A stretch of 64,000 nt of DNA from positions 3,658,001 through 3,722,000 of the forward strand of contig OX424562.1 of NCBI GenBank assembly GCA_949152475.1. Reading direction: 5' to 3'. The notes under the pieces are model-generated. The model was not told where the DNA came from, did no database searches, and saw only the letters and a program-made list of their open reading frames with translations. This DNA is from Terebella lapidaria (taxonomy: Eukaryota; Annelida; Polychaeta; Terebellida; Terebellidae). Made by a program: the position numbers and the translations under genes. Shown here in pieces: positions 4,901 to 27,929 of the stretch; within the stretch, counting starts at the first letter, position 1, and every line of letters starts with the position of its first letter.

Positions 4901-5004
4901 CAACAGAAAATGACCGAGTGCTAAATCGTATAGGGTATCAGGATATCTCTTGGTCCGCCGGGTGTGCATATGCGTCAGCCGCGATCTGCTGCTCATCAGC
5001 AACT

Positions 5005-5434: not shown

Positions 5435-5811
5435 GGTAAGATAGCGGCAATAACTGGCGGCCCCAACTTGAACTCCGGCTCCGGCCCAAATTCCGCGTCA
5501 GTCGATAGCTGAGGAGAGCATGAGGTGACATCATTCTTCAGTTTCTTTTTCATGTCCTTCATCGCCACGTTCAAATACTGGTCGGGATGGGTCTTCTTCA
5601 TATGGAACCTCAAGACATCATCGGCACGAGATCCCTCATAGGAGCAGAACGGACATCTGAACCGTTTTACTACTTGTGAATGTTTCGCATTCTTGTGCCT
5701 GTACAAGGCGGTACAATGCGTGAATACTGGGTCACAGTCGTAACATAGAAATAAAGATTCATACAATTTCATCTTACATTTACGACAGTATGTAACATAC
5801 ATCATTGACAT
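5431..5811 (-). pseudogene. Zinc-finger ORF following gypsy pol (fossil)
   Basis: 126 residues. Residues 9-12 (CRKC) and 23-26 (CYDC), then CPFCSYEG...FHMKKTH at about 53-73, are spaced like C2H2-type zinc-binding units. A Lys-rich stretch (MKDMKKKLKN) follows. The ORF starts a few bases before the pol ORF stops and lies where env or an accessory gene sits in related elements. No signal peptide or membrane segment is visible, so it does not look like an envelope. A nucleic-acid-binding accessory protein is my inference. Confidence 0.6.
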
Positions 5812-6155
5812 AACATGACCCAGTCCCCATATCTTTCCGGGGGTTTCCGTGTTCTGGCAGTGTTCTCTACCAATTCTACAGGAATTTCCGAATCATCATT
5901 CACTCTGTCTGAAACAGCCCCATCCGTCCCAGATTCTGTCACACCATCAGTTCCCTCAAGCACACTGAGTACACAGTCTTCAACGTCATCCAGTTCATGA
6001 CTATCCTGATCAGGCCTTTGCTGAAGTTCAACTGACTCAGAAATATCAGGAGCTAACCAACTGGCTTCCATCCCCCGATAACGATACAGCCTGTCCCTGT
6101 GAACAATCACTTTCCGACTTGACGGATTTCTCTGGATCTTATACGGTGTACACAT
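5802..6155 (-). pseudogene. Ty3/gypsy pol, C-terminal end of integrase (fossil)
   Basis: The 117-residue reading begins inside an integrase C-terminal domain. SRKVIVHRDRLYRYRG corresponds to the 'VVHVDRLKPY' motif that ends the GPY/F-type domain in gypsy pol proteins, and RKPPERYGDWV near the end is the usual basic, proline-rich tail. Everything upstream is missing. It is part of the fossil at 5431-6190 and overlaps the next ORF by a few bases, a tight arrangement that suggests both belonged to one element. Confidence 0.75.
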
Positions 6156-7893: not shown

Positions 7894-10800
7894 CAGAATC
7901 AGAATCAGAAGAGTTTATTCCTATATGTACAAGTTTAACAAATTTTTGATAGATATTGTGTTACAATATGTACAATAGGAAATGGACCACTTGTAGCGTA
8001 AGCTGTATTATTAAGTGGCCCAAAACAAAAACAAAAAACAAAAAGAAAACGAGAGATAACAGAAACAGAGAACAAGGTAACATCAAAATAAATGAGGAAT
8101 GAAAAATATATAACTTGAGTACAAATCAAACAAAATACTGTACAAAGCGGAACAAAGCAAAGAAGGCCTAATGCAGTATGTACACTTAGGAATGGACCAC
8201 TGTTTCAGTGGGTGGTCCATAACAGAAGCAAAAAGTAACAGTACAAACACTAATTAACATGAAATAAAAAGAGGGAAAGAAAAGACTGTACATGTATCTA
8301 TAACTGGAGTATAAACTGAAAAGCTTACTGTATAAGAATATAAATGAAAAAGACAGAAATAGAAGAGGATTGAATAGAAATTGATGTGAAGAGAGAATAT
8401 TGTAATACAGATAAGGAATAAATAAATTAGTATGTTTTTTTAAGTAGTGTTTGGTGTTGGTTGGTGAGGGGGGGGGGGGAGATGGCTGGGAGGCCGGGGG
8501 CTGTACCAGGGATAGAGACCCAGGCATGGAGAACAAGTATTGCCATATTTAATATTCATTGATAGATTTGGTGACCAGATCAGATCTACTAATTGCATTG
8601 CTTGCATAGAGGATTGGTGCATAACACCGAGTCAAGATAATTTGAAAGGAATTTTCTTTTTGTTGTCTTTTTTGCAATAGCAAGTGATTCATATGTTTGT
8701 GAATTTGAATTAAATTTATTCCAAATAGATGGAAATGAATACAATGGGAATTTCCTCAAATGATTGGAGTCACAGCGATCAATTGCAAATAGGGAAGACT
8801 GTCTTGTTACATAGTTTGCCTGGATATCATGATTGAGTTTAAATACACCACTAAAAGAGGAAGGCAATATATTGTGTAAATATTTGTACATAAAGACAAG
8901 TACTTCATAATTATATTGATCTTCAAGTTTCAGTATTTTCATTTGTTTGAACAAAGGCTCTGTGTGACTATTGTATTTGGCTTTATTAATTGTTCTGATT
9001 GCTCTTTTCTGTAGGATGTAGGTTTTCTTAATTAGAGACTGACTTGCATTGCCCCATGCTAGTATTCCATATGTTAGGTGAGGGTGTATCATGGTGAAAT
9101 ATAGGGTTCTGAGAGACTCAGTGGGAAGTATATTTCTAACCTGCTTTATTATGTATAGTGATCTTGATATTTTCTTACTTATAAATGCTAGGTGGTGTTT
9201 CCATGTAAGATTTTCATCTATATTGACACCAAGAAATTTTATACTATGTTCATTAGATGTGTTGCTGATTTGATCGAGCACAAGCCCATTTAACTGTATT
9301 GATAGATTACTTGTATTGCACACCTGGTTGAGGCCCCTGAATACAATATATTTGGTTTTTTTTATATTTAGTGATAACTGATTGGCACAGAACCAGGTGT
9401 ACAAATTACTGAGTTCCTCGTTCGAGTTATGATAAAGGTTTATGATGTTTGAATAGGACAGATACAGAGAAGTATCATCTGCAAATGAAAGTATGTTGGC
9501 TTCGGTGGATATAGCAATATCATTTACGTAAATCAAGTACAATAGAGGTCCCAGAATGGAACCTTGAGGGACACCATATTCAGTAGACAGAGTTTCAGAT
9601 TTTGTATTATCCATCTCAACATATTGATATCGGTCTGATAGATAGCTAGCAAGCCAGTCCCTAATTAATCCCCGCAGGCCATAATGTTGCAATTTATCAA
9701 GGAGTATCTGTCTGTTTAGTACATCAAAAGCCTTGCTCAAGTCGCATAGTATTGCTAAAGTATATTGTTTAGGAACATTATTATTAGAGTTGGTAAAGTC
9801 ATTAAGAAGGTGAATTATAGGATGGATGGTTGAGTGTTTTGGCCTAAATCCGTATTGGTGTTTATAAAATATTGAATTACTATCCAGGAAATTTAGTATT
9901 TTGTTGAAGACTATTTTTTCATAGATTTTAGAGAAGGCCGGGAGCAGACTGATAGGTCTGTAATCAGGCAAAAGATTTTTCTCGCCATTTTTAAAGATTG
10001 GTATGACTTTTGCTATTTTTAAGTCTTTAGGAACTGTGCCTGTCATTAGTGATCTATTAATAATATGTGTCAGTGGGTCGATAATGTTATTTAGTGAGAG
10101 CTTGATTAATTTCATTGGGATATTGTCATGCCCTGTGCTAGTTTTGGGTTTCATTTTATCAACAATTTCTACAATCTGATGTGGTTCTACAGGTTCCATG
10201 AACATACTGTTATTTATTGGATTGTTCAGGTAGTCAGAATATTTCCTTTTGGATTTTGGTATGTTGTTATTTGTTATTTTTCCTATGTTTGCAAAATATT
10301 TATTAAATGAGTTGACAATTTCATTTTTATCTGTTGTTTTGGTATTGTTAATTGTGAATTCACTGGGAAAACCACTCTTATCATTATTTTTGTTTATAGC
10401 TTGTTTGAGAATTTTCCATGTTTCTTTGATATTGTTTTTGTTTTCCTCTATGAGGTTTTGGAAGCATGATTTTTTCATGTTTTTTTTCAGTTTGTTGTAT
10501 AAATTATTATATTTTTTGTATTTGCTGTTGTTTCCAGTTGAGGGAGATTTAAGTTTTTTTTTAAGTAGTTTGGATTTTGTTCTCATTGAGGTAAGTAACC
10601 CACTTGTCATCCATGGATTTTGCTTGATATATCGCTTATTTGATTTGATAGTTTTCATTGGGAAGGCAGTTTCAAAGGCTTCTTTGTATTTAGATATAAA
10701 TAATTCATATGATTTTTCTGGACAGTTAGTATTGATAACATGACTGAAGTCCTGAGATGCGAGTATGTTATTGAATATGTTCATATTTGTTTGGGAGAAA

Positions 10801-11167
10801 GATCTTTTTTGAGGGTCTGATTCCCTGAGTTGCTTGTGCCCATCGTTGAATTCAATGTGAAATGTGCCAAAGTGGTCACTAACATCTGTTAAGATAATCG
10901 CACTTCTGCTGGGAGTATTCTGATTATTTGTATAAATGTGATCTATGAGGGTTGCTGATGTGTGTGTTACTCTGGTTGGTTTTAAGATGGTAGGGAGAAA
11001 GCAATTGCTTATGACATTATCAATAAAATTACGGGTCTTATCATGACAGTTGTACTTTAATAGGTCAATGTTAAAATCACCTAGTATTACACCTTTCTTT
11101 TTTTCCCCATTTATTATGTCAAGAATTTCATGAAATGTAGAAGAGAAAATATCAACATCTGCCCGAG
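7894..11167 (-). mobile_element. 5'-truncated LINE (CR1/Jockey-like) with intact RT
   Basis: The element lies on the - strand and is flanked by a 7-bp target duplication GTGGAAT at 7887-7893 and 11168-11174. If it is removed, the FLYWCH exon of the host transposase gene continues in frame (TVLEWNGTYIRGSQ). The 3' end on the - strand is GGAATAAACTC followed by TTCTGATTCTGATTCTG, a short tandem tail typical of CR1/L2-like LINEs. The 5' end is cut inside the endonuclease. The 3' UTR (about 7900-8588) holds a partial internal duplication (TAGGAATGGACCACT near 8190 and a variant near 7978) and a 12-G run. It is young enough to keep a long open frame. Confidence 0.9.
8589..11167 (-). CDS. LINE endonuclease (partial)/reverse transcriptase
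   Basis: The frame is open for 882 codons counted from an ATG at 11237, but the first ~23 of these lie in flanking transposase DNA, so the true protein is N-terminally truncated. Residues about 28-135 are the C-terminal half of an AP-type endonuclease (ILGDFNIDLL, SDHFGTFHIEF). Residues about 360-640 are the reverse transcriptase: GHDNIP, DYRPISLLP, LCDLSKAFD, GVPQGSILGPLL and the catalytic FADD at about 585. The C-terminus ends CTNPLCKQCN. The 5' half of the protein, including any ORF1, is absent, so this copy could not move by itself. Family placement (CR1/L2/Jockey group) is from motif style only. Confidence 0.9.
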
Positions 11168-13083
11168 GTGGAATGGAACCTACATCCGTGGAAGTCAACA
11201 GCACATCTGTGCTGCTGAGCCAGGTAATCATACACAAATGAAATATGCGTCATCTTGTCTATAAATTCACATAAAGATCATCTCCTTTTAGTAAAATTGG
11301 ATCCTTTTAGTCGATGGAAATATGTTTTAAACTCCAGGTCGTGAGACTGTAGCTGTTAATCGCCGCGAGGTCAAGCAACGGGCGCAGAAGCGAGTGTTTG
11401 ACTCTGCCGCAGAGATTGTTGCCGAAGTGAGCGCTCCACATTAGCTTCAACACTTTAACACTTGAATGTTGCTTAAATTTGTCAATTCAGAATGTTAGCT
11501 CAATTGTATGTTTACCACATCAAATACCTATTACAGGTCATACAGGAGCATCGAGCCGACAGGGAGCACTTGCCCATGATGCCAAAGCTACATCGCCTGG
11601 CAGAGCAAGCTAATAGTGGCAAACGGCGGTTGAGGCCCCGTCATCCCAAAGATTACGTCCCCGAAGGCTTCCTGAGGAAGGACATCCGTGTTGGGACACA
11701 CCGCCACCTGTTGTACGCTATGCAGAGTATGCTGTCTCACCTGTCATGTGCCCACACGTGGTAAGTATCAATCGGTCATAATTTTTTAGATAAATTTTTC
11801 ACTCTTTTTTCCCATAACTAATTAGTATTACATCTACATTTATTAATATGGCTGGTTTCTATCTTGTTAGGTACATGGATTGGACTTTCAAAGTCACCAG
11901 ACGGCCGTTCCAGCAGCTGTTTTCTATTCATGCATTCATGAAGTCTGGCCGGGCCCTAAAACGAGTACCACTTTGTTTCGTGGTGATGAGCAACCGAGAG
12001 GCCCGTCACTACAAAGCTGTGTTCGAGGCAGTGCTTGAACAGCTCGAGGGTCGGTACGCCCTTCGCTGGGTGGTCCTCGACTTTGAGGCAGCTGCTTGGC
12101 AGGCAGTACGTGCCACTTTCCCAGGCGTGGAGGCCAGTGGCTGCTTGTTTCACTTTACCCAGGTATTTATCAATCAACAACTTCTTTCATAACTTCATTC
12201 ACACACACAATGCAGGTTGTTTTGTTTTCCCAAATTAATCAAAATGTTCTAAATGTTCATAAAAATTCTTTTCTAGGCTGTTTTTCGTCACCTCCAGGAA
12301 GTCGGTCTGCAAGCGGCTTACAGACAGGATAGCGGAACACATTCGGTAAGCAATTGCCATTCAAAGTTCTTCAGATACATTATTATCTGTCCAAATAATA
12401 TGTTTGATATGTTTCGATTTTCCACATTAATTAATGGTGTCTGTTGTATCTTTGCAGTTCTGTCGCAACCTGATGTCTCTCCCCTTATTGCCGAGCAAGC
12501 ACATACTCCCATGTTTTAGCTCCTGGCTGCCGAGGTCCCAGCTGACACCCCCGCCCTGACACGCCTTGTGGAATACATCCATGAAACATGGATTCGGGGG
12601 CGAGTCTTCACCCGTCCCGATTGGTGCGTGTTTCGCCAGCCGATCTGCACCAATAACGACGTGGAGGGGTGGCATTACCGGCTCAATCATCGCGGGAAGA
12701 AAGGTATGTAGCTTATCCAGGTCTGCATAGCTTTTACATTGTTATGCAAATTTTCCGTCTATGTATATAAATGTATATAAATGTAACCTTGTTTCTGTGA
12801 TGATAATTAACTTGTCTTTTTTTCCTACTTCCAGCGAAGCTACACTTGTACTTGTGGATGACGCATACCCTGTTTTCAGGCCAAAAAGGAGCCCGACATT
12901 TCGTGACAACCGCTGATATTTCAAGAGAAAATACCCGTAAACCCATCCCTTCCCCAGTTGAGACCAACCTTGCCCATAAATCCATTTTACTGAGTAGCCA
13001 GGACTATTTGTTTACAAACACGCCCTCGACCATGTTGAATAACCCCCTATTCCTCGGGATTTCTCTATTTCTTATATGACAAT

Positions 13084-14050
13084 TGCAGTCTACCCCAATG
13101 TTAATTTTCAGTCGAAAACGTGATCTCAAGAATATCAGCATATTCGAGGATTTGGTCCTGATTAAAGTCAAGTTCATCTGTCAGTGAAATACGCTTTTTG
13201 GCCATAATTTTTTTTTGGATTATCGAATCAACTTGGAATGTGTCTTAATTGGTTATCATGCTGTAATTTTTCACCGATTTTGAGAATCTTATCTCAAGTA
13301 ATGAAAAAGTTGGCAATCTACCTCAATGTTAAATTTCAGTCCAGAATGGGATCAAATAAATTCCAACAAATTCTGGGATTTCTTGATGTTTATGCCAGTA
13401 CAGAATGAATTTAATGCGTTGATTTGAAGTCGGATGGCATAGTCGCCGTGTATATTAAATAAACATGTTTATTTTGAATCATTATATAACTCAAACATCA
13501 AATAAAAGTCGTTTTTGTGTGCAGACCCTGAAATTCCATGTTGGGGCTGAATTTTCCCGTTGGGGTAGATTACCAACTTTTTCATTTTTTGAGATAGAAC
13601 TCATAAATTCGGTGAAAAATTACGGCATGATACCCAATTAAGACCCACCAAATTTCAAGTTGATTCGATAATCCAAAACAAAACTACGGTCAAAAAGCGT
13701 GTTTCACTGACAGATGAACTTGACTTTACCAAAGAGTGTATAGTGTGATTTTGGACGCAAAGACACATTGGGAGTTATTCTACACAAACATGTTGATTTC
13801 GAAATTTTGCACCGCTGGAAAACCGAGCAAATGTACAATATTATGTGCGGACCAAGAAACTAAATGACAGGGCTAAATTTAACATTGGGGTAGATTGCCA
13901 ACTTTTGCAATTTTCGCGATAGAAGTCTGAAATTTGGTGCACAATTGCCGTTTGAATCTGAGGTGAAACCAAGTTATAGAAAGATACCATTTAGCATCGC
14001 AATTTAAATATCTGCCTAAAACAGTGTAAACAAGCTATAAAAATCAGAGT
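13084..14050. mobile_element. MITE family A interrupted by MITE family B
   Basis: The outer sequence matches the interior and right arm of the family A copy at 3096-3667, ending in AAAAATCAGAGTA. Its left terminal arm is missing. Family B lies inside it at 13163-13731 and starts AAAGTCAAGTTCATCTGTCA, returning inverted at its end as TGACAGATGAACTTGACTTT. Both families share the core GTTGGCAATCTACCCCAATG. No coding sequence. The block lies between the dead transposase gene and DCTN3 exon 1. Confidence 0.8.
13163..13731. mobile_element. MITE family B (nested in family A)
   Basis: Terminal inverted repeats begin AAGTCAAGTTCATCTGTCAG and run through GCTTTTTGGCC and GATTATCGAATCAACTTG on both arms. 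It sits at a TTTA/TAAA position of family A. Other copies are at about 49784-50110 (partial) and 50124-50688. Confidence 0.8.
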
Positions 14051-14266
14051 AGTTCGGACGTACGTGCAAAGAGTGTAAAATACTCTTTGGTACGTGTCTC
14101 TCTCTAAATGAATGCCGCATTGGACTCTCCGCCACCTGGCGAATAAAGTACGAACTCATAACATCTGTCATCTTGGGTTCTCTGTACAGTAAACTGGAGT
14201 ACTGGACCTAGTGCAAATAGATTACTGTGAATCTACCTTACTGTTTATATTCACCTGTTCACCGCG

Positions 14267-17200
14267 ATGTCAGAACAAAATCATGTCGATCTGCTGGAAC
14301 AGAAAATAGAGAACCTGGAAAAACTTGTCTTCGGTGAAGCCAACAAGGATGTGTCCTACCCCAAGGTATACAGGGGGTACACCGTACAGGTGATAAGGCC
14401 GCCAAAGTGATCAGGCCGCCATTGAAAACTATCAAACTACAGGTGAAGTGATGGATGACGAGTTTTATGACACTCGTGCTTACGGGTAAGATAATATGCG
14501 GCCCGATCGCTTTGGCGGCCTTATCGCTTGGTAACCGTATAGTATACAGTACAGTTGACGTGCGGGGACTTAAACCCGAGCACTCCCCAAAATCATCTAT
14601 AGATCTACAACGTTCCAGTGTTTGTTGGTTCTGTTGCGATTTCATTGGGAATTTTGCCGTCCATTATGGCATCATAAATAGAGAAGAAATACGTGATGAC
14701 GTCACTTGTGAAGCACATGATGTATTGACCCAGAGTGTAGAGTATGCCTTGCTCGATTCCCGCTTACAACTTGGTACTGATCCATGCAAAAAACGGCTAT
14801 CGAAGGGCCTGAAAACCCGGGATTTTCGTGTTGGACCAATATCTCCTGAAATACACTTTATGCAGTGTGTGTGTGCCAACAGATGTGTTAGAGGCTCAGA
14901 ACCATGGAATACCTTCATGTCTATTCAATGGAATCATTTTGATGGTCTACAGGTGTATATATTAAATTATATTTGGTATATTTTGAGTTTACATAGTCAA
15001 ACCTGGGAGATATCTGGCAACTTCATAAATCGGTGATATAGCCATTGTCAGTGAATTCATTCAAATTGTTTCAGGTAATATTACTTACCTGAGATAGCTG
15101 GCCAAATCAACTGTCAGAGGCATATTTACCATCAAGGATGAAATTTTCCACAAAAAAAAAAAAAATTTTAAAAAAATCATGCTTGAGAGCAGTTTGCGGA
15201 CGCAGGTAAAGGTTGCCAGAAATCTCTCACATTTCGAATTTAAACTAGAAAATATATCAACTGTATCCAACTTAGACTACTCAAAATGTTTCCATACAAT
15301 GGCTATGAGGATCCCTCGTGGCTCTGACACAGTTATTGGCACATACACACTGATTTTTATGAGATATTGGCCCAACACGAAAATCCCGGGTTTTCAGGCC
15401 GTTCGGTGACCATTTTTTTGCATGGACTAGTACCAAGCTGTAGGCGGGCACCAGGCAAGAGTATGCCTATCAGCTACGGTATCCGTCTTAATCTGCTAAT
15501 TTTGTATCTAGATCTATATACATTTTGTAATACGCACGCTAGTGAACGTACGATCTCATGCATGCATGAGTGTGGAAAATTGCGCACCTGCAAGTGGATA
15601 TAGATCGAGATCTATAACCTGTACCTGATAACTTTCATAACTAACGGGATATGAGAGTTACCTTATGCTATGGTCACATGTCATACCCAGAGGATTCCCG
15701 ACGTATCTACGACAAAAAATTGAAAACTCCGGAAACTGACGGGAATCTCCATGGATGTTCCACCCTGACTCCCGCTTGTGTCATGCACCATAACAAGCTT
15801 TCTGTTCTCTTTGTACAAAAATGTTGTAGGCTGCATTCAATAGCAGGTGTGAATCTGTATTCGGAATTTCAATGGCCTACAATTATGACTTCAAGTCATG
15901 ATAGTTGACGCTGATCATGTGTATGTGTATACATGAATTGTTTTTGTCATTGCAATTCAATGAGCAAATGTCTTTGACTCCTCCATGTTTATGGCGAGAA
16001 AGCTGAGCCAAAAAATTAATCAGATTCATCACATTTGGGTACAAAAGAAGTACTCATTCCATGGTGAACGTGTTTCATGGTTAACGTATGTTGAGAGGAC
16101 AGCACAGACATTACATGTACCACTGATTGGTAATGTCTGAATTATCCATCTTCACCTGTTTACATGTATTGCTCAATCGTATGGTTGACGTTTTGGCAAT
16201 AAACCAATATACATTGTAGATAATTGTATGACTTGAGTGATCTCCAGCAACTGGGCTGCTCAGATATTATCATTGAATAGCTTGAAAAGCTGATTTAAAT
16301 TTCAAAATGTCATGCATTCATGTGTTTTTTGTTTTACATGTGCAGGATACACCCGAGGTTTGTATACATTCTTGTTCTAGACCACTGTATATACACCAGC
16401 ACTTGGTCAGGTTTAATAGATACTAGTAATTAAAACTCTATTAGGTTCCATGTAACATAGAGTAATACAGTTTAATGGTGAACGGGTGAAGTTGCTAGCA
16501 TTGAGTTGGTTGTGGTGAGGACATCTAGCTCGGACACTGGACTCAGTAGGGGTGACATCATCGTAATGCCCGCTATATGCTTAAGTCACATGAAAAAAAG
16601 TTGACATGTGACGTTGTCTCCTAAAACATTTTAGACTGTACATATAGAAGATATTCAAAGCATAAGTCAAAGAACACTGAGATGATGTCACCCGCTGCCT
16701 CTTCACACTCCGAACCGTATAACCCTACAGACGTCTGTAGGGTTATACCAAGATGGCGGAAGGTTTGTAGCTTCGATTTGTTTCAGGCTATTTCGAGGGA
16801 ATTTAATTACCTTTGATACGAAATGAGTTATTCCTTCCAAGGAGCACATCTTAGTTTGTCTGAGGCCGTGTCTGTTTGTTGAGAAGTGTTTTATTTCGGC
16901 GGATTTCTCGATCTCCAGATTCTAGCATGTATAACCCTTTCGTTTGTTGTCTATAACCCTACAGATACTACGGCCGTGAACAGATATAACCCTACCTGCC
17001 GAAACATGTGACAGTTGGGAATCAGTTTAATCCTAGATTTTATCCGCAAAAAACGAACACTTCAGTAGTACAGTAATTGTGATACCATTTATTTTGACCA
17101 TCTGACAATTTGGCAGATATTATGAATTATCCAATCTGATGGTGCAAACAAGAGTTTCAAGTTTGAAAGTATATAATGTACATATACTCAGATTTTTCTA

Positions 17201-20200
17201 ACTCGTTTACAATGTTGTTGCTGATATTTTTGTGATCCTAAATGGTATCGTATCATGACTTGGTATACTTCACCTGTGAGTCAAATGCCAATTTTCATTT
17301 TTAGGTTACCGGACCTATGGTCCGATAACCTATTGGCATGGCGTTGCGTCCGTCGTCCGTCGTCGTCCGTCGTCGTCATCGTCCACATTTTTATCTTTTT
17401 TGTTTACGGGCGAATTCTTCTGAAATTTTGCACAAAAATACTTAAAAATAATTCAGGAAGGAGGTATTTTTTAGTTTTTTGATTTTCGCATTTTTTTCAA
17501 AATGGCGGCCGTTTTCGACGAAAAATGCCTGATTTTGGACTTTGGTGGCCATTTTCTCAAAATCTGTTCAGTAACTTTTTTTCTTTTTGATACATAACAC
17601 TCCTCATATGTACCCCTATGATGTCTATAAATTTCGTTGCACTTGAATCGCTCGAAGTGGGCCATTTTGGCCCAAACTCGGCCAAATGGGACTTTCCCAT
17701 GTTAAATTCTCCTATGCTTTATAATGGGACACATTATGCCTAATATCTCACTTGATATTGAGATTAGAGACTAGGAATCAATTGTGGACATATAGGAAAT
17801 GATATATGCTGAATATCCTCGTGACCTTGAATTTGACCTCTGACCTCAATTCAAGGTCAGAGCTGAAAATGGCTGATATCTCGCTTATTATCGACTCTAC
17901 AGCTTAGCAATCAATTGTGGACATATAGGAAATGATATATGCTGAATATTCTGATGACCTTGAATTTGACCTTTGACCCCATTTTCAAGGTCATAGGACA
18001 AAATGGCTAATATCTCGCTTGTTATCGACTTACAGCTTAGGAATCAGTTATGAACATATAGGAAATGATATATGCAGATTATTGTCATGACCTTGAAGTT
18101 GACCTTTGACCTCATTTTCAAGGTCACAGGACAAAATGGCTAATGTCTTACTTATTATCGACTCTACAGCTTAGGAATCAATTGTGGACATATAGGAAAT
18201 GATATATGCTGAATATTCTGATGACCTTGAATTTGACCTTTGACCGCATTTTCAAGGTCATAGGACAAAATGGCTAATATCTCGCTTGTTATCGACTTTA
18301 CAGCTTAGGAATCAGTTATGAACATATAGGAAATGATATATGCAGATTATTGTCATGACCTTGAATTTGACCTTTGACCTCATTTTCAAGGTCACAGGAC
18401 AAAATGTCTAATATCTCACTTATTATCGATTTTACAGCTTAGGAATCAATTGTGGACATGTAGGAAATGATATATGCTGAATATTCTCGGACCTTGAATT
18501 TGACCTCTGACCTCATTTTCAAGGTCCAAGGACAAACTGGCTCATATCTTGTTCCTCTATTGACTGTATGGCTTGGGAATCAATTGTGGACATGATATAG
18601 AAAATGATATACACTGAATATTTTGATGACCTTGAATTTGACCTTTGCCCCTTCATTTTCAAGGCCACAGCACAAAATTGCTAATATCTCGCTGATTATT
18701 GAATTTACAGCTTAGCAATCAATTGTGGACATGATATATGCTTAATGTTATATATGCTGAATATTCTCTTGACCTTGAATTCAACCAGTGACCTGGCTAA
18801 CATCTAATATATTAAACATTGTCCGGTAACCTATCTTCGGCCCTTGGCCTAATTTTTTTACTCTCATGTTTTCGTTGATAAATATAGCAGCCTATTTCAA
18901 AATTTAGGGAGGGGGGGGGGGGGGGGACACCGAAGTAAATCGGAAAAATTGATGTCCTCCAGATACCTCTGAGTTGTACCATGATATACTTTTATATAAA
19001 CTATAATGTATTTAGGAGCTACCTTCATGGGACAACTTTGTCAATTCATCCCATGATTTACACCAAAGCAGGAAAATATAAGTATATTAGAATGATAATT
19101 TATGAAAATATCGTCACAGAAAAGTTATACTATTCAAATTGCAAGATGAGCATGGCTGGTATGAGGGTTTGGGGGAAAGAAAATGTGCAAAATTGTTGAC
19201 TCTCATATCTCTTCTGAAGTGTACAATCCTGGCGCGTCTCAGTTAAGTACAGACATCGCAATATTAGACGCATACCGTATTGGTCCAAATAGTGGTACTC
19301 GCCCTAATAGCAGAGCGTCCCCTCTTTTGCCCAAAAATGTTCGGTTTTTGTAACCTTATAATTCACTTCATATCTTTCTTATAAGATATTGGAGTGTTCC
19401 AATCCACACATTCATGTTATTTGAATCATAATATAGGGGATTGAAGGATAAATTATTCAGTGTTATTTTTACATTTCACTTCAAGTTTGACCTCACTTTT
19501 GCGCGTGCTGCTGCAGGGGGTCTTGCTTTGGCTCGCCGCGCTACTATTATAGGACAAACACGATATATTTGTTGCTTCTGTTGCTATACCTACATATAGA
19601 TGTTGTTATATTATTATTGTTTTGGAATATTATTGTTTGTGAATAGAACAACATATATGACATTTATGTGTGTTTGAAAAAACATGGCGTCAGACCGCCT
19701 AATAGAATTGCAAAATGAATACTAGTAAATGAAAATGAGAGTATTACCACATCTACAGCCGACTTGTTGGGGATGAAACATAACCACAAATATTATAAAG
19801 TAGATCTAAAAACATACATGGCATCCTTATGTTTCACCATGTTATTATTTTGGTTGGAATCACACTTATACATGCTATAAAATGAGAAAATTTAACACGC
19901 AAAAAATATAATTGTGTCTATTCTTCTTTCGAAATTCTCCATCGGTAGGGTTATACGCGCTGATTGTTAGGGTTATAACTCTGCCGGAGAGCTGTGTCGT
20001 TAGGGTTATACACACGCGTATTTTCTTCTCCCTCTTACCCGCCTCTGACAGATTCAAGACATAACCCGGCCACGCATTATCCATCAGTTAACATCACTGA
20101 ACTTCGACACAACACTGGTTATGTGAATACCGTGACAAAAGCGCTGCAATACACACACATTTCGTGGAAGCGACGTACCTTCCGCCATCTTGCTATAAAC

Positions 20201-23200
20201 CTACAAATATCTGTAGGGTTATACGGTTCGGAGTGTGCTCTTGGCTTCTGATAAATTAACATTCTCACTGCGTAATAAAAATATCTGTAACTGTCCGTTC
20301 ACCTCTCCAATCTCATGCCGGAGTGTTTATATTACTATTTTAGACATACGATACAACAGGAAAAATGTATTGCATCAAACTATGATGTAAACAATGATGG
20401 AAAATAGGATTCCAAGTACCACATACTTTTTATATATTACCTGCCATTCTCATCATGCTTAGTTTATTTGCTTACTAACAATCAATTTGTTTGTTATTGC
20501 CATACTCTGTGCCACACTACAACATTTTGTCTGGGTTGGTGTCCCCCACAAATGAAATGTTTGAATATTAGATTTTGTTGTATACCTTTGATCACAGCAT
20601 GACTAAAATCAGTAAAATTGGTTCCTTCAACGTGTTCAAATGAGAGGAATTTAGTGAGATGTAATACTGGTAATTGGGTTTAATATTACAAAAGTAAACG
20701 GAATTTGCAATTCATTTGACATGTTCGACACCTGAAAAATATTTACAAGCATGTCCAAACCAGGTAGTTGTTCTTGAATTTTCTTGCAGTCATGTGTGTA
20801 GTATGCAGAGCCCTTGGGGAAACATGGAAGATTTCTCTTACACATTGCTATTTCTTACAATATAATTGCGTCCTCTTGTAGTCTAGCTTACATTCCTCAT
20901 GATCCTACTTACTTACACCTCAGATTGCATTCCTCCGCAATCTTATTACGGAATGTAAAACATGCATAACATTCTCAGAAATTGTGGGTATAGAGACTAG
21001 AAGCAAGGATCGTCAATAATAGGATATCCAACTCTGCCCAAAAAGGCGTGATTACGTAATATGACGTGAATCTGATTTGAGCGTGTTGAAACGGTGCCGG
21101 GGCGTTAATAATCAGTATGTGCACATCGATTTGTGATAAACTTGAGCAGAGTTGTGAACGATATATTGAAATGAATGATAGGTGATTGCACCGTAATTGG
21201 ACATCTTCTGCTAGAAGTAGGAAATGCAACTAGGCAAATTACTTGGAGCAATGTGATCAAAACTGATAGTTGAAACTTTGAAAGGGAATCATCGAACCAC
21301 GAAACTTGTTGTGATCATTCTCGTTTTCTATATAAATCTACCATTTTATTTACGAAAAGCTTAACCGGTTAACCGGTCACTGCATCTGTGACCGGTCACA
21401 AGCATTTCTGTGACCTGACCGGTTACCCGTGTACCTGTATTAGCCCTAGTTGTTACCCCTTGTGATTCACTAGGTAAACACATCGGAAGTAATTGCAAAT
21501 ACGTGAAATAAAACATAGAAGTTGTTCATGCCACACACACCTGCAAGGATATTCGGAAACAGATATCTGATTTGAACTACAGCAAAGAAGGTATTTGATC
21601 AAAACTGGAGTTGATGGGAGCCTGAGTGATATGAATTGTCTAACCAGAACAATTACTTTGTAGACATGCTTCATGCTGAGAATGATTTTATCCATCATCG
21701 ATGTAAAATACCATGTGTTCTTTAGGGAACAAACTTGGTGTGAAATTGAGCTATCATAGAGTTGTTATTACAAAACTTGCTGAAATTTACCACAAACATG
21801 TCATTGTAAAAACAAAAAATAGTAACCCGAGCCACATAAGTACATGTATACACCTGACAGATTGTCGACACCTTGGCGCACCTCAAAAAGCAGATGCAGA
21901 CGTCGCTTGCTGAACGACAGAAAGCTCAACCAACACTAAAAAAATGTAAGTGTAGCAAGTCGTAACAGGGTTTCTGTTCAGTGTAGTCTTTTCTGAGTAC
22001 AGAATACAATTTTCTGCTTGATTTCTTACTGACAAGCACTATCGTTTGTTGGATGCCTTGCTACGTGTTAGTCATGTTTTGTTTATGGCAGTGGGAGAGT
22101 TGAACGACTTCCTAGACCCGTCCTTCACCGAGAATTTGACCATCGACCGGGACGCCAAACTCGACATCATACTCGCTGGTCAGTGCTGTGAGCAGACTTC
22201 TGTCCCACATGGACATGGGTATATCGAGTATGGATAAGGATGAATAATTTGTGTGTATTTGACAGAGGAGGACTACATACGAGCTACAGCCACACAGCTG
22301 GAAAAAGTCAAAGACGCAGCAGACGTCCTTGGTAGTGAACACATCAAAGGTCAGTGAACACATCAAAGGGCAATGAACACATCAAGATCAGTGAACACAT
22401 CAAAGGTCAGTAAACACATCAAAGCGCAGTGAACACATCAGAGGTCAGTCAACACATCAAGGTCAGTGAACACATCAGAGGTTAGTAAACATCAAAGGGC
22501 AATGAACACATAAAAAATCAGTGAACACATCAAAGGGCAATGAACACATTAAAGGTCAGTGAACACATCAAAGGGCAATGAACACATCAAGGTCAGTCAA
22601 CACATCAAAGGTCAGTCAACACATCAAAAGTCAGTCAACACATCAAGGTCAGTGAACACATCAGAGGTCAGTGAACATATCAAAGGGCAGTGAACACATC
22701 AAGATCAGTGAACATATCAAAGGTCAATCAACGCATCAAAGGTCAGTGAACACATTAAAGGACAGTCAACACATCAAGGTCAGTGAACACATCAGAGGTC
22801 AGTGAACACATCAAAGGTCAGTGAACACACCAAAGGGCAATGAACACATCAAGATCAGTGAACATATCAAAGGTCAGTCAATGCATCAAAGGTCAGTGAA
22901 CACATTAAAGGACAGTGAACACATCAAAGGTCAGTCAACACATCAAGGTCAGTCAACACATCAGAGGTCAGTGAACACATCAAAGGTCAGTGAACACATC
23001 AAAGGGCAATGAACACATCAAGATCAGTGAACATACCAAAGGGCAATGAACACATAAAAGATCAGTGAACATATCAAAGGGCAGTGAACACATCAAAGGT
23101 CAGTGAACACATCAAAGGGCAATGAACACATCAAACGTCAGTGAACATTGAAGGGCAGTGAATACATCAGTGAACACATCGAAGGGCAGTGAACAAACCA

Positions 23201-24567
23201 AAGGGTGAACACACCAAAGGTCAACGAATACATCAATGAGCAGTGAACACACCAAAGGACAGTGAACACATCAAAGATCAGTGAACACTTCAAGGTCAGT
23301 AAAAACATCGAAGGGCAGTCAACACATCAAGGGTCAGTGAACACATCAAAGGTCAGTTAATACATCAAAGTTCAGTAAATATATATCAAAGGTCAGTGAG
23401 CATCGAAGGTCAGTGAACACATCGAAGTTCAGTGAACGCATGAAAGGTCATTGAACACATCAGAGGTCATGGAATTCATCAAAGGTCAGTAAGCATATAT
23501 CAAAGGTCAGTGAACACATCAAGGGGCAGTGAACACATCAAAGGTTGGTGAACAGTTCAGAGGTCAGTGACAACAGATCAAAGGTAAATGAACACATCAA
23601 AGGTCAGTGAACACATCAAATATAATTGAGCACATCAAATGTCAGTAAACACATCAAAGGTCAGTGAACAGTTCAGAAGTCAGTGATCAAAGGTAAATGA
23701 ACACATCAAAGATCAGTGAACACATCAAAGATCATTGAGCACATCAAAGATCATTGAGCACATCAAAGGTCAGTAAACACATCAAAGGTCAGTGAACACA
23801 TCAAAGATCATTGAGCACATCAAAGGTCAGTAAACACATCAAAGGTCAGTGAACACCTCAAAGGGCAATGAACACATCAAAGGTCAGTGAACACATCAAA
23901 GATCATTGAGCACATCAAAGGTCAGTAAACACATCAAAGGTCAGTGAACACATCAAAGATCATTGAGCACATATCAAATGTCAGTGGGCACATCAAAGGT
24001 CAGTGAACAGTTCACAGGTCAGTGATCAGAAGTTAATGAACACATCACGGTCAGTGAACACATCAAAGGTCGGTGAACACACCAACGGTCAGTGAACAAT
24101 TCAGAGGTCAGTTAGTAGATCAGTGTTTGTGGATACAGAGTTTGTTGAGGAGATCACTCGATGCTATATTGCAAGTGTGTTTTGTCTGTTTCAGTCATTC
24201 CTGGTTTAGAGAAGCAGCTACAGGAGTTGACCAAACTACACCTGAATCAGCAGGTCGGTGAAGTTTCCACAGTTTGATAACAGTCCAGTAAGTACTGAGT
24301 GATGCGGCTTCAATAACCTGTTGTATTCTGCTCACAGGACAGAGCATGTGAACTTACAGAAGAGGTCAAGAAGCTGTTTGCTCAGTACAACAACGTTGTA
24401 TCCTTGCTCTAAAGCTGTACTCTGGTAAGGATGAGTTCTCTCCAATATCACGCAGGCCTCTCTGCTCATAGCTAGTTCCTTGACAACTGTACCAGATCAG
24501 TGTGTTGTCGCGTCAGTTCGTACACTGGGACGAGACGATCACCCGACTAGAGTCACGACCAACGTGA
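14267..24567 (+). CDS. DCTN3: Dynactin subunit 3 (p24), seven coding exons
   Basis: Dynactin p24 is a small coiled-coil subunit in the shoulder of dynactin, the dynein cofactor that works on microtubules and at centrosomes and kinetochores. Coding exons: 14267-14365, 21861-21945, 22092-22178, 22266-22349, 24195-24253, 24338-24397, 24496-24567. All introns are GT-AG, phases close, and the sum is 546 nt (181 aa plus stop), against about 186 aa in human DCTN3. Family-like segments: LLEQKIENLEKLVFG at the N-terminus, LNDFLDPSFTENLTI in the middle, VIPGLEKQLQELTKLHLNQQ, and SRQFVHWDETITRLE matching the conserved SKQFVQWDELL end. The start context is CACCGCGATGT. Intron 1 is 7.5 kb and packed with repeats. 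Intron 4 is a 1.8-kb tandem array seeded by the exon-4 donor. A TAA at 24410 would be read only if exon 6 ran past its GTATCC donor. The gene looks intact. Confidence 0.95.
14392..14525. repeat. Short inverted repeat in DCTN3 intron 1
   Basis: GATAAGGCCGCCAAAGTGAT and its complement ATCGCTTTGGCGGCCTTATC bound the segment, with arms of about 27 bp starting just after exon 1. It is probably a tiny foldback insertion. Confidence 0.7.
14751..15468. mobile_element. Inverted-repeat element in DCTN3 intron 1
   Basis: The left arm (14751-14855) contains CCTGAAAACCCGGGATTTTC GTGTTGG-type sequence, and the right arm (15365-15468) contains its complement, CGAAAATCCCGGGTTTTCAG. The arms are about 105 bp at roughly 85 percent match. 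The interior has a poly(A) run near 15153. No ORF of a known family. Confidence 0.75.
15469..16698. other. DCTN3 intron 1, no feature recognised
   Basis: AT-rich intronic sequence. The phrase 'ATGGTGAACG/ATGGTTAACG' recurs a few times, but I see no gene or clear repeat family. Confidence 0.4.
17180..17300 (+). mobile_element. MITE family A, single arm
   Basis: TACTCAGATTTTTCTAACTC through TATACTTCACCTGTGAG matches the left arm of the copy at 3096. It breaks off where the GGTTACCGGAC element begins at 17301, and the other arm is not found. Confidence 0.7.
17301..18852 (+). mobile_element. GGTTACCGGAC repeat element with 133-bp internal repeats
   Basis: The left end TTAGGTTACCGGACCTATGG and the right end GTCCGGTAACC...GGCCTAA are imperfect inverted repeats. 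A CGTCCGTCGTC stretch follows the left end. From about 17720 to 18790 there are about eight units of 133 bp, each with 'CTAATATCTCGCTTATTATC', 'GGACATATAGGAAATGATAT' and a block rich in TGACC. No ORF. The family has a second, damaged copy at 46441-47150. Elements with these ends are abundant in some marine invertebrate genomes, as far as I recall. Confidence 0.8.
17822..18513 (-). promoter_or_regulatory. Array of DR1 and extended half-sites for nuclear receptors
   Basis: TGACCTNTGACC (complement of a DR1, AGGTCA-N-AGGTCA) occurs at 17834, 17967, 18100, 18234, 18368 and 18501, spaced 133-134 bp. A TCAAGGTCA extended half-site (ERR/NR5A type) lies a few bases downstream at 17851, 17985, 18118, 18252 and 18386. 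A TGACCTTGA stands just upstream in most units. The words match known receptor consensus sites. Whether any receptor binds them here is inference. Confidence 0.55.
18911..18926 (+). repeat. Poly(G) tract, 16 G
   Basis: Uninterrupted G run following TTTAGGGA, inside the TIR element of DCTN3 intron 1. Confidence 0.9.
20243..21860. other. DCTN3 intron 1, right part
   Basis: No gene or repeat family recognised apart from the ACCGGT cluster at 21363-21423, listed separately. Confidence 0.4.
21363..21423. promoter_or_regulatory. Cluster of four ACCGGT sites
   Basis: AACCGGTT at 21363, ACCGGT at 21372, 21391 and 21418, within 61 bp and about 440 bp upstream of DCTN3 exon 2. AACCGGTT is the known Grainyhead/CP2 core site. 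Function here is inferred only. Confidence 0.35.
22334..24130 (+). repeat. 19-bp minisatellite seeded by the DCTN3 exon-4 splice donor
   Basis: The unit is GTCAGTGAACACATCAAAG, repeated roughly 85-95 times with drift (GGCAATGAACACATCAAAG, ATCATTGAGCACATCAAAG and others). The first unit is the end of exon 4 itself (AGTGAACACATCAAAG, 22334-22349) followed by the donor GTCAGT, so the array fills almost all of intron 4. By eye, about 25 units keep AAAGGTCAGT exactly and others keep AAGGTCAGT or GAGGTCAGT. There are no distinct spacers. Confidence 0.95.
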
Positions 24568-24806
24568 ACACATCAAACCTTAATATTGGCTTCATTAGTG
24601 AACAATTCGTGTCTTTGAATCAGATCTTGTGTTCAGACAATGATGCACCTCATGCTTTCATTTCTTGTTGATAGTAGGTCTATGTCTGTATTATTTGTAT
24701 ATATTTAACTTATATTCTGCTGCGCATATTGGTTAAATGTTTTGATTTGGGAGCTGTCATCATTTGTCGCCATTTATTCTCATGACAAATACAGTCAACA
24801 TGTAAA

Positions 24807-24812
24807 AATAAA
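24807..24812 (+). terminator. Possible DCTN3 polyadenylation signal
   Basis: AATAAA about 240 bp after the stop codon, in an A-rich context. It is the first canonical hexamer I found downstream. Confidence 0.5.
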
Positions 24813-25093
24813 ATAACAATGGAATCTATCATGGTTAGTAGTTTACTTTTTGTATGGAGATATCCTATGGTAAAACCACAATACCTATTCATTTTATCTA
24901 GCAACCAAAGTGGCCAATTGTTGACAGTTGGGGATGTTGAAATTATGATATTAGGGAGGTTGAGATTTTACGCAGGAACTGGAATTCCTGGAGACTTGAA
25001 TTTATCATACAAACATTATTTCGTATTTGAATTCAAGTGGTCAGATGATCATCACAATTTTTTTTCGTCCTTGTTTGTAGCAAAATTTTATTG

Positions 25094-27280
25094 AAAAGTC
25101 GTCTTTCAGTTGCTATTGCTTTCCGTTTCACTTACGTCTGAATTGACAAATTGGTTGGTCGAATTGACAAATACCACCGTCTGGGCCTACTGGTTTGCTT
25201 CCAGTCACTGTGGTGAGATAAACCAGAAAGAGTAGAATGAAGAGAGGGAAACGCAGTACGGCTGTTTTGGCCATAAGCCCAATGGTTAAAAAGTGCATAA
25301 ATCCAAGTCATTTCAATTACACGTTTGACACAGGGTGCATACATGGAGTGCATAATGTACATTTGCTCTCTGGGGGTGGGGGGGGGGGTGGTGGCAGACT
25401 GCATAAGTGCATAATGGAAATACATGGTCAATGCGCATTTGACACAGGGTGTGTAGTATACATGGAGTGCATAAATGCACATTTGCTCTCTGGGGGAGGG
25501 GGGGGGGGGCTGGTGGCAGACTGCATAATGCACAAATGCATACATGGTCAATGCACGTTTGACACAGGGTGCACACATTGAGTGCATAAATGCACATTTG
25601 CTCTCTCGGGGAGGGTTGGGCCCTGTGACAGGGTGTATGAATGCATAAGTGCATAAATGCATACGTGGTCAATGAAAGTTTGACACAGGGTGCACACATG
25701 AAGTGCATAAATGCACATTTGCTCTCTGGGGGGAGGAGGCCTGGTGGCAGAGTGCATAAATGCACAAGTGCATACATGGTCAATGCACGTTTGACACAGG
25801 ATGCATACATACCATGGAGTGCATAAATGCACATTTGCTCTCTGGGGAAGGGGTGGGCCCTGTGACAGGGTGCATGAATACATATGCACTCTTGACACAG
25901 GGTGCATACATGGAGTGCATAAATGCACATTTGCACTGTTTAGGAGGGGTGGGCCCTGTGACTGCGTGCGTAAGTTTTCAACAATCATAACAACAATTAC
26001 TCTGAAACTTTGGGGTGGAAAGGGGCATGGTTCGGAGCGCCCGTACGACATTACATGGGCGTGGAAGGGAGGTGTTTGTTGTCATTGTGACAGTATTTTT
26101 TTTCAACAATTATAACAACAATTACTCTAAAAAGTCGTCTTTCAGTTGCTATTGCTTTCCGTTTCACTTACGTCTGAATTGACAAATTGGTTGGTCGAAT
26201 TGACAAATACCACCGTCTGGGCCTACTGGTTTGCTTCCAGTCACTGTGGTGAGATAAACCAGAAAGAGTAGAATGAAGAGAGGGAAACGCAGTACGGCTG
26301 TTTTGGCCATAAGCCCAATGGTTAAAAAGTGCATAAATCCAAGTCATTTCAAATACACGTTTGACACAGGGTGCATACATGGAGTGCATAAATGCACATT
26401 TGCTCTTGGGGGTGGGGTGGGCCATGTGACATCGTGCATAAATGCATGAGTGCATAAATGCATACATGGTCAATGCATGTTTGACACAGGGTGCATACAT
26501 GGAGTGCATAATGTACATTTGCTCTCTGGGGAGGGGGGGTGGTGGCAGACTGCATAAGTGCATAATGGAAATACATGGTCAATGCGCATTTGACACAGGG
26601 TGTGTAGTATACATGGAGTGCATAAATGCACATTTGCTCTCTGGGGGAGGGGGGGGGGGCTGGTGGCAGACTGCATAAATGCACAAATGCATACATGGTC
26701 AATGCACGTTTGACACAGGGTGCACACATTGAGTGCATAAATGCACATTTGCTCTCTCGGGGAGGGTTGGGCCCTGTGACAGGGTGTATGAATGCATAAG
26801 TGCATAAATGCATACGTGGTCAATGAAAGTTTGACACAGGGTGCACACATGAAGTGCATAAATGCACATTTGCTCTCTGGGGGGAAGGAGGCCTGGTGGC
26901 AGAGTGCATAAATGCACAAGTGCATACATGGTCAATGCACGTTTGACACAGGATGCATACATACCATGGAGTGCATAAATGCACATTTGCTCTCTGGGGA
27001 AGGGATGGGCCCTGTGACAGGGTGCATGAATACATATGCACTCTTGACACAGGGTGCATACATGGAGTGCATAAATGCACATTTGCACTGTTTAGGAGGG
27101 GTGGGCCCTGTGACTGCGTGCGTAAGTTTTCAACAATCATAACAACAATTACTCTGAAACTTTGGGGTGGAAAGGGGCATGGTTCGGAGCGCCCGTACGA
27201 CATAACATGGGCGTGGAAGGGAGGTGTTTGTTGTCATTGTGACAGTATTTGTTTCAACAATTATAACAACAATTACTCTC
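25094..27280. repeat. Direct duplication of a ~1.04-kb block built of 116-bp minisatellites
   Basis: AAAAGTCGTCTTTCAGTTGC begins both copies, at 25094 and 26130. The offset between copies is 1036 bp at the left and 1152 bp at the right, so the second copy holds one more 116-bp unit. Units read ...ATGGTCAATGCACGTTTGAC ACAGGGTGCATACATGGAGTGCATAAATGCAC... and end in a G-rich stretch. Copies are nearly identical. The long open frames here on both strands are low-complexity shadows. Confidence 0.9.
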
Positions 27281-27560
27281 AAACTTCGAGGCGGAGGGGG
27301 GTCGGGCATGTCACGCAGGGCCCGTATGACATTACCAGGCCGTGGTTGGGAGGTATATGTTGCCTTTGTGACAGTATTTTTCTCAACAGTTATAACAACA
27401 ATGATCCTATAACTGGGGCGGAGGGAGATATGTCCCAGAGAGCCCGTATCACATTACAAGGGCGAAGTTGGGAGGTGCTTGTTGCTGTTGTGACAATATT
27501 TTTTCAACAGTTATAACAACAATAACTCTAACATTTTGTGGTGGAGAGGAGCATGGTGCG
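25975..27560. repeat. ~105-bp tandem repeats with CAACAATTATAACAACAAT
   Basis: Units contain CAACAnTTATAACAACAATnA, a GGGCATG...GCCCGTA(C/T)GACATTAC segment and GGGAGGT(G/A)TTTGTTG. One or two follow the first block and about four follow the second, running to about 27560. Confidence 0.75.
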
Positions 27561-27929
27561 GAGCGCCCAGATGACATTACAAGGGCGTGGTACACAACCG
27601 AAGCATAGCAAAATATATGCCAGGTGTACATGTCTCAATGGGGTCTTTTCAGGAATCTCCTTCTGGGACTTGTCTGATCGCTCCTTGGTGGTCGACTTGA
27701 CCGGCTTGACAGTAGCAGCTGAGACCATCATCTGTACATATAAGACAAAACATTTACAACAAAATATAATATGCTGAGTTACATACGAGGTAGTCTACTC
27801 CTTCCAGTCGCTCCAACACAAGAAAGGGCCCCTCGTATGGTTTCCTGAGCTTGGGGGCCAGGTTCAACTGGCCTATCTCAGTTTGCAACCACACATAATC
27901 CCCTGGTTTGTGAGGTTGTTGGTGGACCG

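What the first reader, a model, noticed from the sequence alone, without database searches (positions are those of the whole stretch)
22334..24130. A minisatellite made from DCTN3's own exon-4 splice donor
The last 16 bases of exon 4 plus the donor (AGTGAACACATCAAAG then GTCAGT) are the 19-bp unit that fills intron 4 roughly 85-95 times. By eye about 25 units keep AAAGGTCAGT exactly, so the intron is a field of decoy donors with the same flanking exon bases. Using a later donor would read AAA GGT CAG TGA and stop after two extra codons, since the first added unit carries TGA in frame. The gene must either choose the first donor strictly or lose transcripts to decay. That makes array length a possible tuner of DCTN3 output.
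Basis: partly seen in the sequence, partly recalled or inferred. Interest (0 to 1): 0.9.

Follow-up and report, generated by a model that had tools for sequence, protein, structure and literature searches.

The report
Splice-site repeat array in DCTN3 intron
In an unnamed invertebrate-like genome, the end of one DCTN3 exon and its splice signal have been copied about 95 times into the next intron, and a dozen or so other apparent genes there show the same kind of array, a known but rarely described type of repeat that offers a natural test of how cells choose between identical splice sites.

Summary
Intron 4 of a DCTN3 gene holds a 19-bp minisatellite, 95.2 copies (22334-24112), running unbroken out of exon 4. 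Its unit is the exon's last bases plus the donor. Exactly 25 AAAGGTCAGT occur; 56 of 94 later units keep GT. A later donor adds Gly-Gln-stop.

The exon came first: SEHIK is identical in Paralvinella DCTN3, and PDB dynactin subunit 3 has SAHIK. The unit is not dispersed: in 762 Mb every hit found with up to 2 mismatches lies in this array.

It belongs to a described kind: amphioxus "mirage" minisatellites, the human ABCA7 intron 18 VNTR, the IFI6 minisatellite. Unexpected is how often it recurs here. Of 16 donor-like arrays fetched elsewhere in the genome, 13 abut an apparent exon end at its donor, as does an RGS22 array. Homology supports the exons of RGS22, MCM3AP, MORC2, an Ig and a laminin-EGF exon; the rest are judged by eye.

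The tuning idea is untested. Most likely the first donor wins by cross-exon proximity, with low leakage to decay. The excess of donor-killing substitutions seen in DCTN3 does not recur across 12 arrays.

The parts
14267..14365 (+). DCTN3 exon 1 (MSEQNHVDLLEQK...), donor GTATAC
   Evidence: tblastn of Paralvinella P0002, E 2.9e-8; spliced frame
21861..21945 (+). DCTN3 exon 2
22092..22178 (+). DCTN3 exon 3, donor also GTCAGT
22266..22349 (+). DCTN3 exon 4; its last 16 bases AGTGAACACATCAAAG are the first copy of the unit
   Evidence: SEHIK conserved
22331..22336 (+). Exonic GGTAGT, left arm of the proposed slippage microhomology with the donor GGTCAGT
   Evidence: sequence; alignment row 1 lacks only the C
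22350..22355 (+). Inferred authentic donor GTCAGT (the only one that keeps the frame)
22350..24112 (+). Donor-seeded minisatellite: 19-bp units GGTCAGTGAACACATCAAA; 94 units after the one at the authentic donor, 56 with GT, 41 with GGTCAGT
22355..22357 (+). TGA in frame that ends translation if a later donor is used
24106..24112 (+). Last GGTCAGT, probable ancestral donor; 88 nt from the acceptor
24113..24194 (+). Rest of intron 4, mostly unique, with pyrimidine-rich end and TTTCAG acceptor
   Evidence: sequence
24195..24253 (+). DCTN3 exon 5 (59 nt; skipping it also gives an early stop)
24338..24397 (+). DCTN3 exon 6, weak donor GTATCC
24496..24567 (+). DCTN3 exon 7 with stop codon TGA

Best explanation
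Intron 4 of this DCTN3 gene carries a donor-seeded ('mirage'-type) minisatellite. SHOWN: the array is continuous with the exon end, its unit is exon end plus donor, the exon bases are conserved coding sequence, the unit was not found elsewhere at up to 2 mismatches, and other apparent genes in the same genome have the same arrangement. INFERRED: it began by slippage between GGTAGT in the exon and GGTCAGT at the donor of an intron of about 88 nt, then grew by duplication of units. Every copy past the first lies on the intron side, so the coding sequence is unharmed as long as the first donor is used. Growth to 1845 nt would have moved exon 4 from intron definition to exon definition, in which the donor nearest the exon's own acceptor wins. 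Later donors are used rarely, and such transcripts stop after two codons and probably decay. The array is thus mainly tolerated intron growth with a small splicing cost, not a dedicated regulator.
For: Array and exon continuity: (0 of 4000 nulls). Conservation: LGSEHIKV is identical in P0001 and Paralvinella P0002, and SAHIK of PDB dynactin subunit 3 aligns without a gap. Not dispersed: 7 exact 22-mers in 762 Mb, all here; with 1 or 2 mismatches 43 more, all here; with 3 mismatches 9 outside (one of them in the RGS22 array), against 6 hits in all for the reversed control. Single gene copy: the 7 protein hits are this gene's exons. Edges: GGTAGT left, GGTCAGT right. Neighbouring short introns are 146, 87, 84 and 98 nt, against 88 nt from the last donor. 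Other genes: RGS22 and 13 of 16 pattern-found arrays. Proximity rule: in exon-defined minigenes with two identical strong donors the upstream one was used exclusively (PMC9225289, Results part 1). ABCA7: retention of one unit in about 2% (PMC5954066 passages).
Against: No transcript data, so the donor used is inferred. U1 pairing does not single out the first donor: 33 of 56 GT-bearing decoys pair as well or better, 12 better (U1 sequence recalled). In PMC9225289 weakened identical donors led to exon skipping in the larger constructs, and without a strength filter the downstream donor was preferred in most events. The right edge is fuzzy, so 88 nt is approximate. No relative's intron 4 could be read, so the order of events rests on protein conservation. 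The genome search scores only its best candidates.
Confidence: 0.85

Rival explanations
1. Regulatory array: copy number tunes DCTN3 output because longer arrays divert more transcripts to later donors (decay) or make exon 5 skip.
For: ABCA7 VNTR length correlates with lower expression and with exon 19 skipping (PMC5954066 passages). All three later-donor products tested and exon 5 skipping end early.
Against: In ABCA7 one-unit retention did not change with length. Amphioxus mirages are said not to disturb splicing. No length or expression data here.
Confidence: 0.15
2. Selection has been disabling the decoy donors in DCTN3, so the array shows purifying pressure against wrong donors.
For: Columns +5, +2 and +1 are the most substituted of 19 (+7 ties with +1): 2 of 969 column triples reach their sum; 7 of 969 on distinct haplotypes; 42 of 969 on minimum-spanning-tree events. 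The first two decoys lack GT. One other array, L031, ranks 3 of 31.
Against: It does not recur as a rule: over 12 arrays the donor columns sit at mean percentile 0.586, 0 being most substituted, and in L029, L030, L033, L038 and L040 GT is among the least substituted places. A base-matched test in DCTN3 gives 2 of 18. No clear trend with distance from the exon: Fisher 0.14, Spearman p 0.09. Much of the raw signal comes from two amplified variants.
Confidence: 0.12
3. The unit is an older dispersed satellite that landed in intron 4 and was then recruited into the exon end.
For: Other arrays share AGGTCAGT; a DNA search finds 67-71% matches on C3 and C7.
Against: No copy found with up to 2 mismatches elsewhere; the C7 match proved to be an RGS22 array with its own exon end; the C3 match has a different 22-bp unit; S-x-H-I-K is conserved to PDB dynactin subunit 3.
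Confidence: 0.02
4. The array acts as a homotypic cluster of nuclear-receptor half sites (AAAGGTCA), a transcriptional element.
For: 27 AAAGGTCA and 6 TCAAGGTCA in the array, on one strand. The motif names are recalled.
Against: The motif is forced by exon end plus donor. Units of other donor-seeded arrays such as L033, L037 and L040 lack both words, though L029, L030 and RGS22 units hold one of them.
Confidence: 0.03

Closest known systems
Amphioxus 'mirage' minisatellites (Adh3, globins BflGb6/BflGb9, troponin C, PGBD5)
   Same: Tandem duplications that span an exon-intron boundary, many but not all units with AG/GT signals, unstable in length, reported not to disturb splicing, suspected to be general in cephalochordates (passages of PMC3087553, and PMC3902484).
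   Different: Cephalochordate; globin and PGBD5 repeats are few and long (60-160 bp; Adh3 10-72 bp); here 95 units of 19 bp in an animal whose nearest named hits are an annelid, with many apparent genes affected in one genome.
Human ABCA7 intron 18 VNTR
   Same: Array adjoins an exon and includes its donor; each unit starts with GT; 12-427 copies; one-unit retention gives a frameshift and stop (PMC5954066 passages).
   Different: 25-bp unit described as starting at the GT; here the unit includes 12-13 exon bases. In ABCA7 length goes with skipping of the next exon; unknown here.
Human IFI6 (6-16) minisatellite
   Same: Downstream repeat units serve as splice donors (one Introduction passage of PMC4526556; the original Turri 1995 paper is not held).
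   Different: There two downstream units are used and give isoforms; here later units give a stop.
Variable tandem repeats at exon-intron boundaries in human segmental duplications
   Same: A genome-scale survey: minisatellite-type repeats at exon-intron boundaries change splicing; 27 intron modifications after inspection (PMC2812944 passages).
   Different: Average 30-bp units repeated 4 times in recent paralogs; reported as forming new introns, not as large donor arrays in single-copy genes.
Intron gain by tandem duplication of AGGT segments (Rogers model; potato RdRp; fission yeast 24-bp repeats)
   Same: Tandem duplication of sequence with AG|GT at exon-intron borders (PMC4974935 passages).
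   Different: There a new intron forms; here a pre-existing intron appears to have grown.

Membership tests
Mirage minisatellite (boundary-spanning tandem duplication) | Repeat unit spans an exon-intron boundary of the host gene | tested here: met
   Exon's last 16 bases and the donor are in the array
Mirage minisatellite (boundary-spanning tandem duplication) | Units carry copies of the splice signal | tested here: met
   56 of 94 units keep GT, 41 GGTCAGT
Mirage minisatellite (boundary-spanning tandem duplication) | Length instability between haplotypes | not testable with these tools
   One assembly only
Mirage minisatellite (boundary-spanning tandem duplication) | Does not interfere with normal splicing | not testable with these tools
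   No RNA data
ABCA7/IFI6-type donor VNTR | Later units used as donors in some transcripts | not testable with these tools
   33 of 56 GT-bearing decoys pair with U1 as well as the authentic donor or better; no transcripts
Dispersed satellite or mobile element | Unit present at unrelated loci | tested here: not met
   No copy found outside the array with up to 2 mismatches in 762 Mb
Intron gain by AGGT duplication | A new intron created from exonic sequence | tested here: inconclusive
   Mostly unique intron remainder with its own acceptor suggests an older intron; relatives' intron positions not available

The most novel reading that the evidence does not exclude
In this animal, donor-seeded minisatellites are a genome-wide, continuing class, probably dozens to hundreds of introns (10 AGGTCAGT arrays listed on the 101-Mb contig C1 alone, of a 762-Mb genome): splice donors are a favoured seed of tandem expansion because duplicates across a donor are automatically spliced out. 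This would be a recurrent route of intron growth outside chordates, and a panel of natural genes in which tens of identical donors compete.
Probability: 0.6. Interest if true: 0.78.

Novelty: new member of a known kind. Interest (0 to 1): 0.62.

Why it matters
Cases of this repeat type are known in amphioxus and humans. A genome with many of them, with TRF matches between units from 68% to 98%, lets one ask how the spliceosome picks one of dozens of identical donors, whether cross-exon proximity suffices, and how introns grow. In DCTN3 every wrong choice is a stop, so junction reads would be a clean readout. The ABCA7 case shows such arrays can matter for disease.

Tried and rejected
Dispersed-satellite origin: rejected. 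Selection against decoys as a general rule: tested on 12 arrays, not supported. A 14-base unit copy at the DCTN3 stop codon (24564-24577): 12 of 2000 shuffles of the nearby 700 bp reach its score, but 9 of 60 shuffles of the whole window do too, so left open. Viral contigs: no exact hit for the 19-mer. Rfam: no family in 14000-25500. Species: no close self-hit for DCTN3 or an FkbM-type protein; the best named relative is Paralvinella palmiformis, so an annelid-like animal is likely, not shown.

Control for the pattern search: of 7 fetched arrays found with the reversed motif, L046 is itself donor-seeded and L043 starts 27 nt after a donor; L042 and L048 show no exon at either edge by eye; L047 none at the one edge fetched; L044 and L045 unresolved. 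13 of 16 against 2 of 7: Fisher 0.026; against 2 of 5 resolved: 0.11. So the searched motif is not the only way to find donor-adjacent arrays. The AGGTCAAT control search did not complete.

Labels not confirmed: TPR for L040 (no PDB hit), MOV10 for L036 (only one hit, of another molecule, at 0.0094); Pfam gave nothing for the exons of L028, L029, L030, L032, L034; the exons of L038 and L039 were not searched. Exon 7 start in the scripts was 2 bases off; one search is right.
Full report
WHAT IS THERE. The window lies at G000:C8:3658001-3722000 of a 762-Mb genome in 438 contigs. Region 14267-24567 holds a seven-exon DCTN3 gene: exon 1 was found by tblastn of the Paralvinella protein, the rest by reading and the same search, and the spliced frame is open for 181 residues. 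Pfam Dynactin_p22 matches at 2.1e-39 and PDB dynactin subunit 3 at 3.9e-27; both queries lacked exon 1 and had an earlier reading of the exon 6/7 junction. Introns are 7495, 146, 87, 1845, 84 and 98 nt. Intron 4 is unlike its short neighbours: 22350-24112 is a 19-bp minisatellite. TRF places its start at 22334, sixteen bases inside exon 4.

The unit is best written GGTCAGTGAACACATCAAA: the donor with the last exon base, then twelve exon bases. Alignment gives the exonic copy, the unit at the authentic donor, and 94 further units, the last one partial. Of these 94, 56 keep GT and 41 keep GGTCAGT. AAAGGTCAGT occurs 25 times, the authentic junction included. Of 93 decoys scored for pairing with U1 (one with a gap at the junction dropped; U1 sequence recalled), 56 have GT, 33 of these pair at least as well as the authentic donor and 12 better. 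So local sequence cannot tell the right donor from many wrong ones. Extending exon 4 to end at 22405, 22461 or 24106 gives ...SEHIKGQ and a stop; skipping exon 5 gives ...SEHIKGQSM and a stop.

WHICH CAME FIRST. The exon bases encode SEHIK. P0001 (unnamed source) and Paralvinella P0002 have LGSEHIKV unchanged, and four fish proteins have S-x-Y-I-R; PDB dynactin subunit 3 has S-A-H-I-K in the same place without a gap (mammalian by recall). The unit was not found elsewhere: 7 exact 22-mers in the genome, all in the array; with 1 or 2 mismatches 43 more, again all in the array; with 3 mismatches 12 in the array and 9 outside, one of those in the RGS22 array below, against 6 hits in all for the reversed pattern (the tool scores only its best candidates). 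One DCTN3 gene is found, no retrocopy (7 hits, all this gene's exons). The exon-first reading is therefore well supported, though no relative's intron was available.

HOW IT BEGAN. The left edge is GGTAGT in the exon (Gly-Ser codons) and the right edge is GGTCAGT at 24106-24112. The first row differs from the consensus only by the missing C. This fits slipped pairing between GGTAGT and GGTCAGT, 18-19 bp apart, in an ancestral intron of about 88 nt, a size like those of the neighbours. It is an inference; faint unit traces beyond 24112 make the right edge approximate. Runs of variants recur by eye, but similarity between units shows no strong lag.

NOT ALONE. A DNA search with the array found 67-71% matches on C3 and C7. 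The C7 array lies after an exon ending ...LFFYCEVHKFK|GTCAGT; units of the array contain the same exon end and donor, CCACAAGTTCAAGGTCAGT. The gene is an RGS22 relative (PDB 9fqr, E 4.7e-9, this exon end aligned; Pfam RGS 1.1e-4, just under its cut-off). The C3 array has a different 22-bp unit in a repeat-rich stretch with no evident exon. I then searched for three AGGTCAGT within array spacing: 2097 hits against 281 for the reversed word; for AGGTRAGT 447 against 254. Counts are hits, not arrays, and the lists are cut to the first rows. From the listed rows I took all 10 distinct C1 arrays and 6 of the 8 distinct places (left out were a C2 stretch with hits over 19 kb and a place beside L027).

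Of these 16, 13 abut what looks like an exon end at its donor: L026, L028, L029, L030, L031, L032, L033, L034, L036, L037, L038, L039, L040. L027 lies in a kinase intron whose 3' end resembles the unit (acceptor side). L025 (2.8 copies) and L035 (3.8 copies) show nothing of the kind. Exon calls were by eye (acceptor, open frame, donor). Homology backs MCM3AP (E 3.6e-20; the GTD of PGTD is coded inside the unit), MORC2 (E 1.4e-17), an Ig exon pair and a laminin EGF exon; with DCTN3 and RGS22 that is 6 of 15 junctions. Over the 15, the array by TRF starts inside the exon (-28 to -3) in 11. The exon's last 24 bases reach scores that 12 or fewer of 4000 nulls reach in 8 (DCTN3, RGS22, L026, L029, L032, L033, L036, L038), 49-93 of 4000 in 5 (L028, L031, L034, L037, L040), and are not significant in 2 (L030, L039); in L031, L034, L037 and L039 the best-matching exon stretch does not reach the exon's last base. 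TRF match between units runs from 68% (L029) to 98% (L033). Reading on past the donor in the longest open frame meets a stop within one unit in 8 of 15.

CONTROL. Of 7 arrays found with the reversed word, one (L046) is donor-seeded with a different donor, GTGTGA, and one (L043) starts 27 nt after a donor; L042 and L048 show none, L047 none at the one edge read, L044 and L045 are unresolved. So donor-adjacency is not peculiar to the searched motif, and the difference to the test set is modest (Fisher 0.026 against 2 of 7, 0.11 against 2 of 5).

HOW IT WORKS. With near-equal donors, human exons between long introns favour the donor nearest their own acceptor, and minigenes with two identical strong donors used the upstream one exclusively; short introns favour the opposite (PMC9225289, abstract and Results part 1). 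Against this, donors weakened together caused skipping in the larger minigenes, and without a strength filter the downstream donor was preferred overall. An 84-nt exon before a 1845-nt intron should then use its first donor, whereas a short intron pairs with the last one. In ABCA7 a donor VNTR leaks one unit in about 2% of transcripts, not changing with length, while length goes with next-exon skipping and lower expression (PMC5954066 passages). Amphioxus mirages are reported not to disturb splicing (PMC3087553 and PMC3902484 passages). I therefore expect tolerated growth with small leakage. Decay of the stop-bearing transcripts is from general knowledge, not tested.

SELECTION. In DCTN3 the donor positions +1, +2, +5 are the most substituted columns, +7 tying with +1 (2 of 969 triples; 7 of 969 by haplotype; 42 of 969 by tree events; 2 of 18 base-matched). 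Across 12 arrays the effect is not general (mean percentile 0.586; only DCTN3, rank 1 of 19, and L031, 3 of 31, are near the top). I do not claim it.

KNOWN KIND. This is a mirage-type minisatellite. The term and cases come from the passages cited; Turri 1995 on IFI6 is known to me only through citing papers. A human survey already reports tandem repeats at exon-intron boundaries in segmental duplications (PMC2812944 passages). In the listings of searches (titles and starts of abstracts) I saw no report of donor arrays across a non-chordate genome; the library holds open-licence papers only. An earthworm metallothionein paper describes intronic minisatellites and a GTYAGK donor consensus, but the passages seen do not give this origin (PMC12783039). 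The DCTN3 array is a new member; the apparent abundance is the new part.

Noticed in passing
24564-24577: GTGAACACATCAAA, 14 bases of the unit, sits at the DCTN3 stop codon (TGA inside it); two close relatives have a longer C-terminus. 12 of 2000 local shuffles reach it, 9 of 60 whole-window shuffles do.
   Followed up: partly
L027 (G000:C1:1042501-1052400): A 39-41 bp array in a kinase intron whose 3' end resembles the unit: possible acceptor-side counterpart.
   Followed up: partly
G000 C1: The 10 listed AGGTCAGT arrays on C1 all lie within about 16 Mb of a contig end (rows, a cut list), as subtelomeric minisatellites would.
   Followed up: no
L026, L033, L037, L040: Donor-seeded arrays in MCM3AP, an Ig-domain gene (98% matched units, so young), MORC2 and a coiled-coil-like gene (95 copies).
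   Followed up: partly
L046 (G000:C2:61645701-61647900): A control array that proved donor-seeded with a GTGTGA donor.
   Followed up: partly
17736-18781: 134-bp tandem array in DCTN3 intron 1 rich in TGACCT/AGGTCA.
   Followed up: no
1-1593; 25320-27591: Further tandem arrays: 182-bp repeat, and 121-bp and 129-bp repeats downstream of DCTN3.
   Followed up: no
4862-5892 (-): 45-bp array inside an open frame next to a zinc-finger-like reading frame, by eye.
   Followed up: no
56253-57368 (+): Intronless FkbM-type methyltransferase frame, 54% to a Paralvinella protein.
   Followed up: partly
24398-24403: Exon 6 donor GTATCC pairs weakly with U1 (-1.3 kcal/mol), though the frame requires it.
   Followed up: no
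8589-11249 (-); 38526-45532 (-): Long reading frames that look like reverse transcriptase and LTR-element proteins by eye.
   Followed up: no
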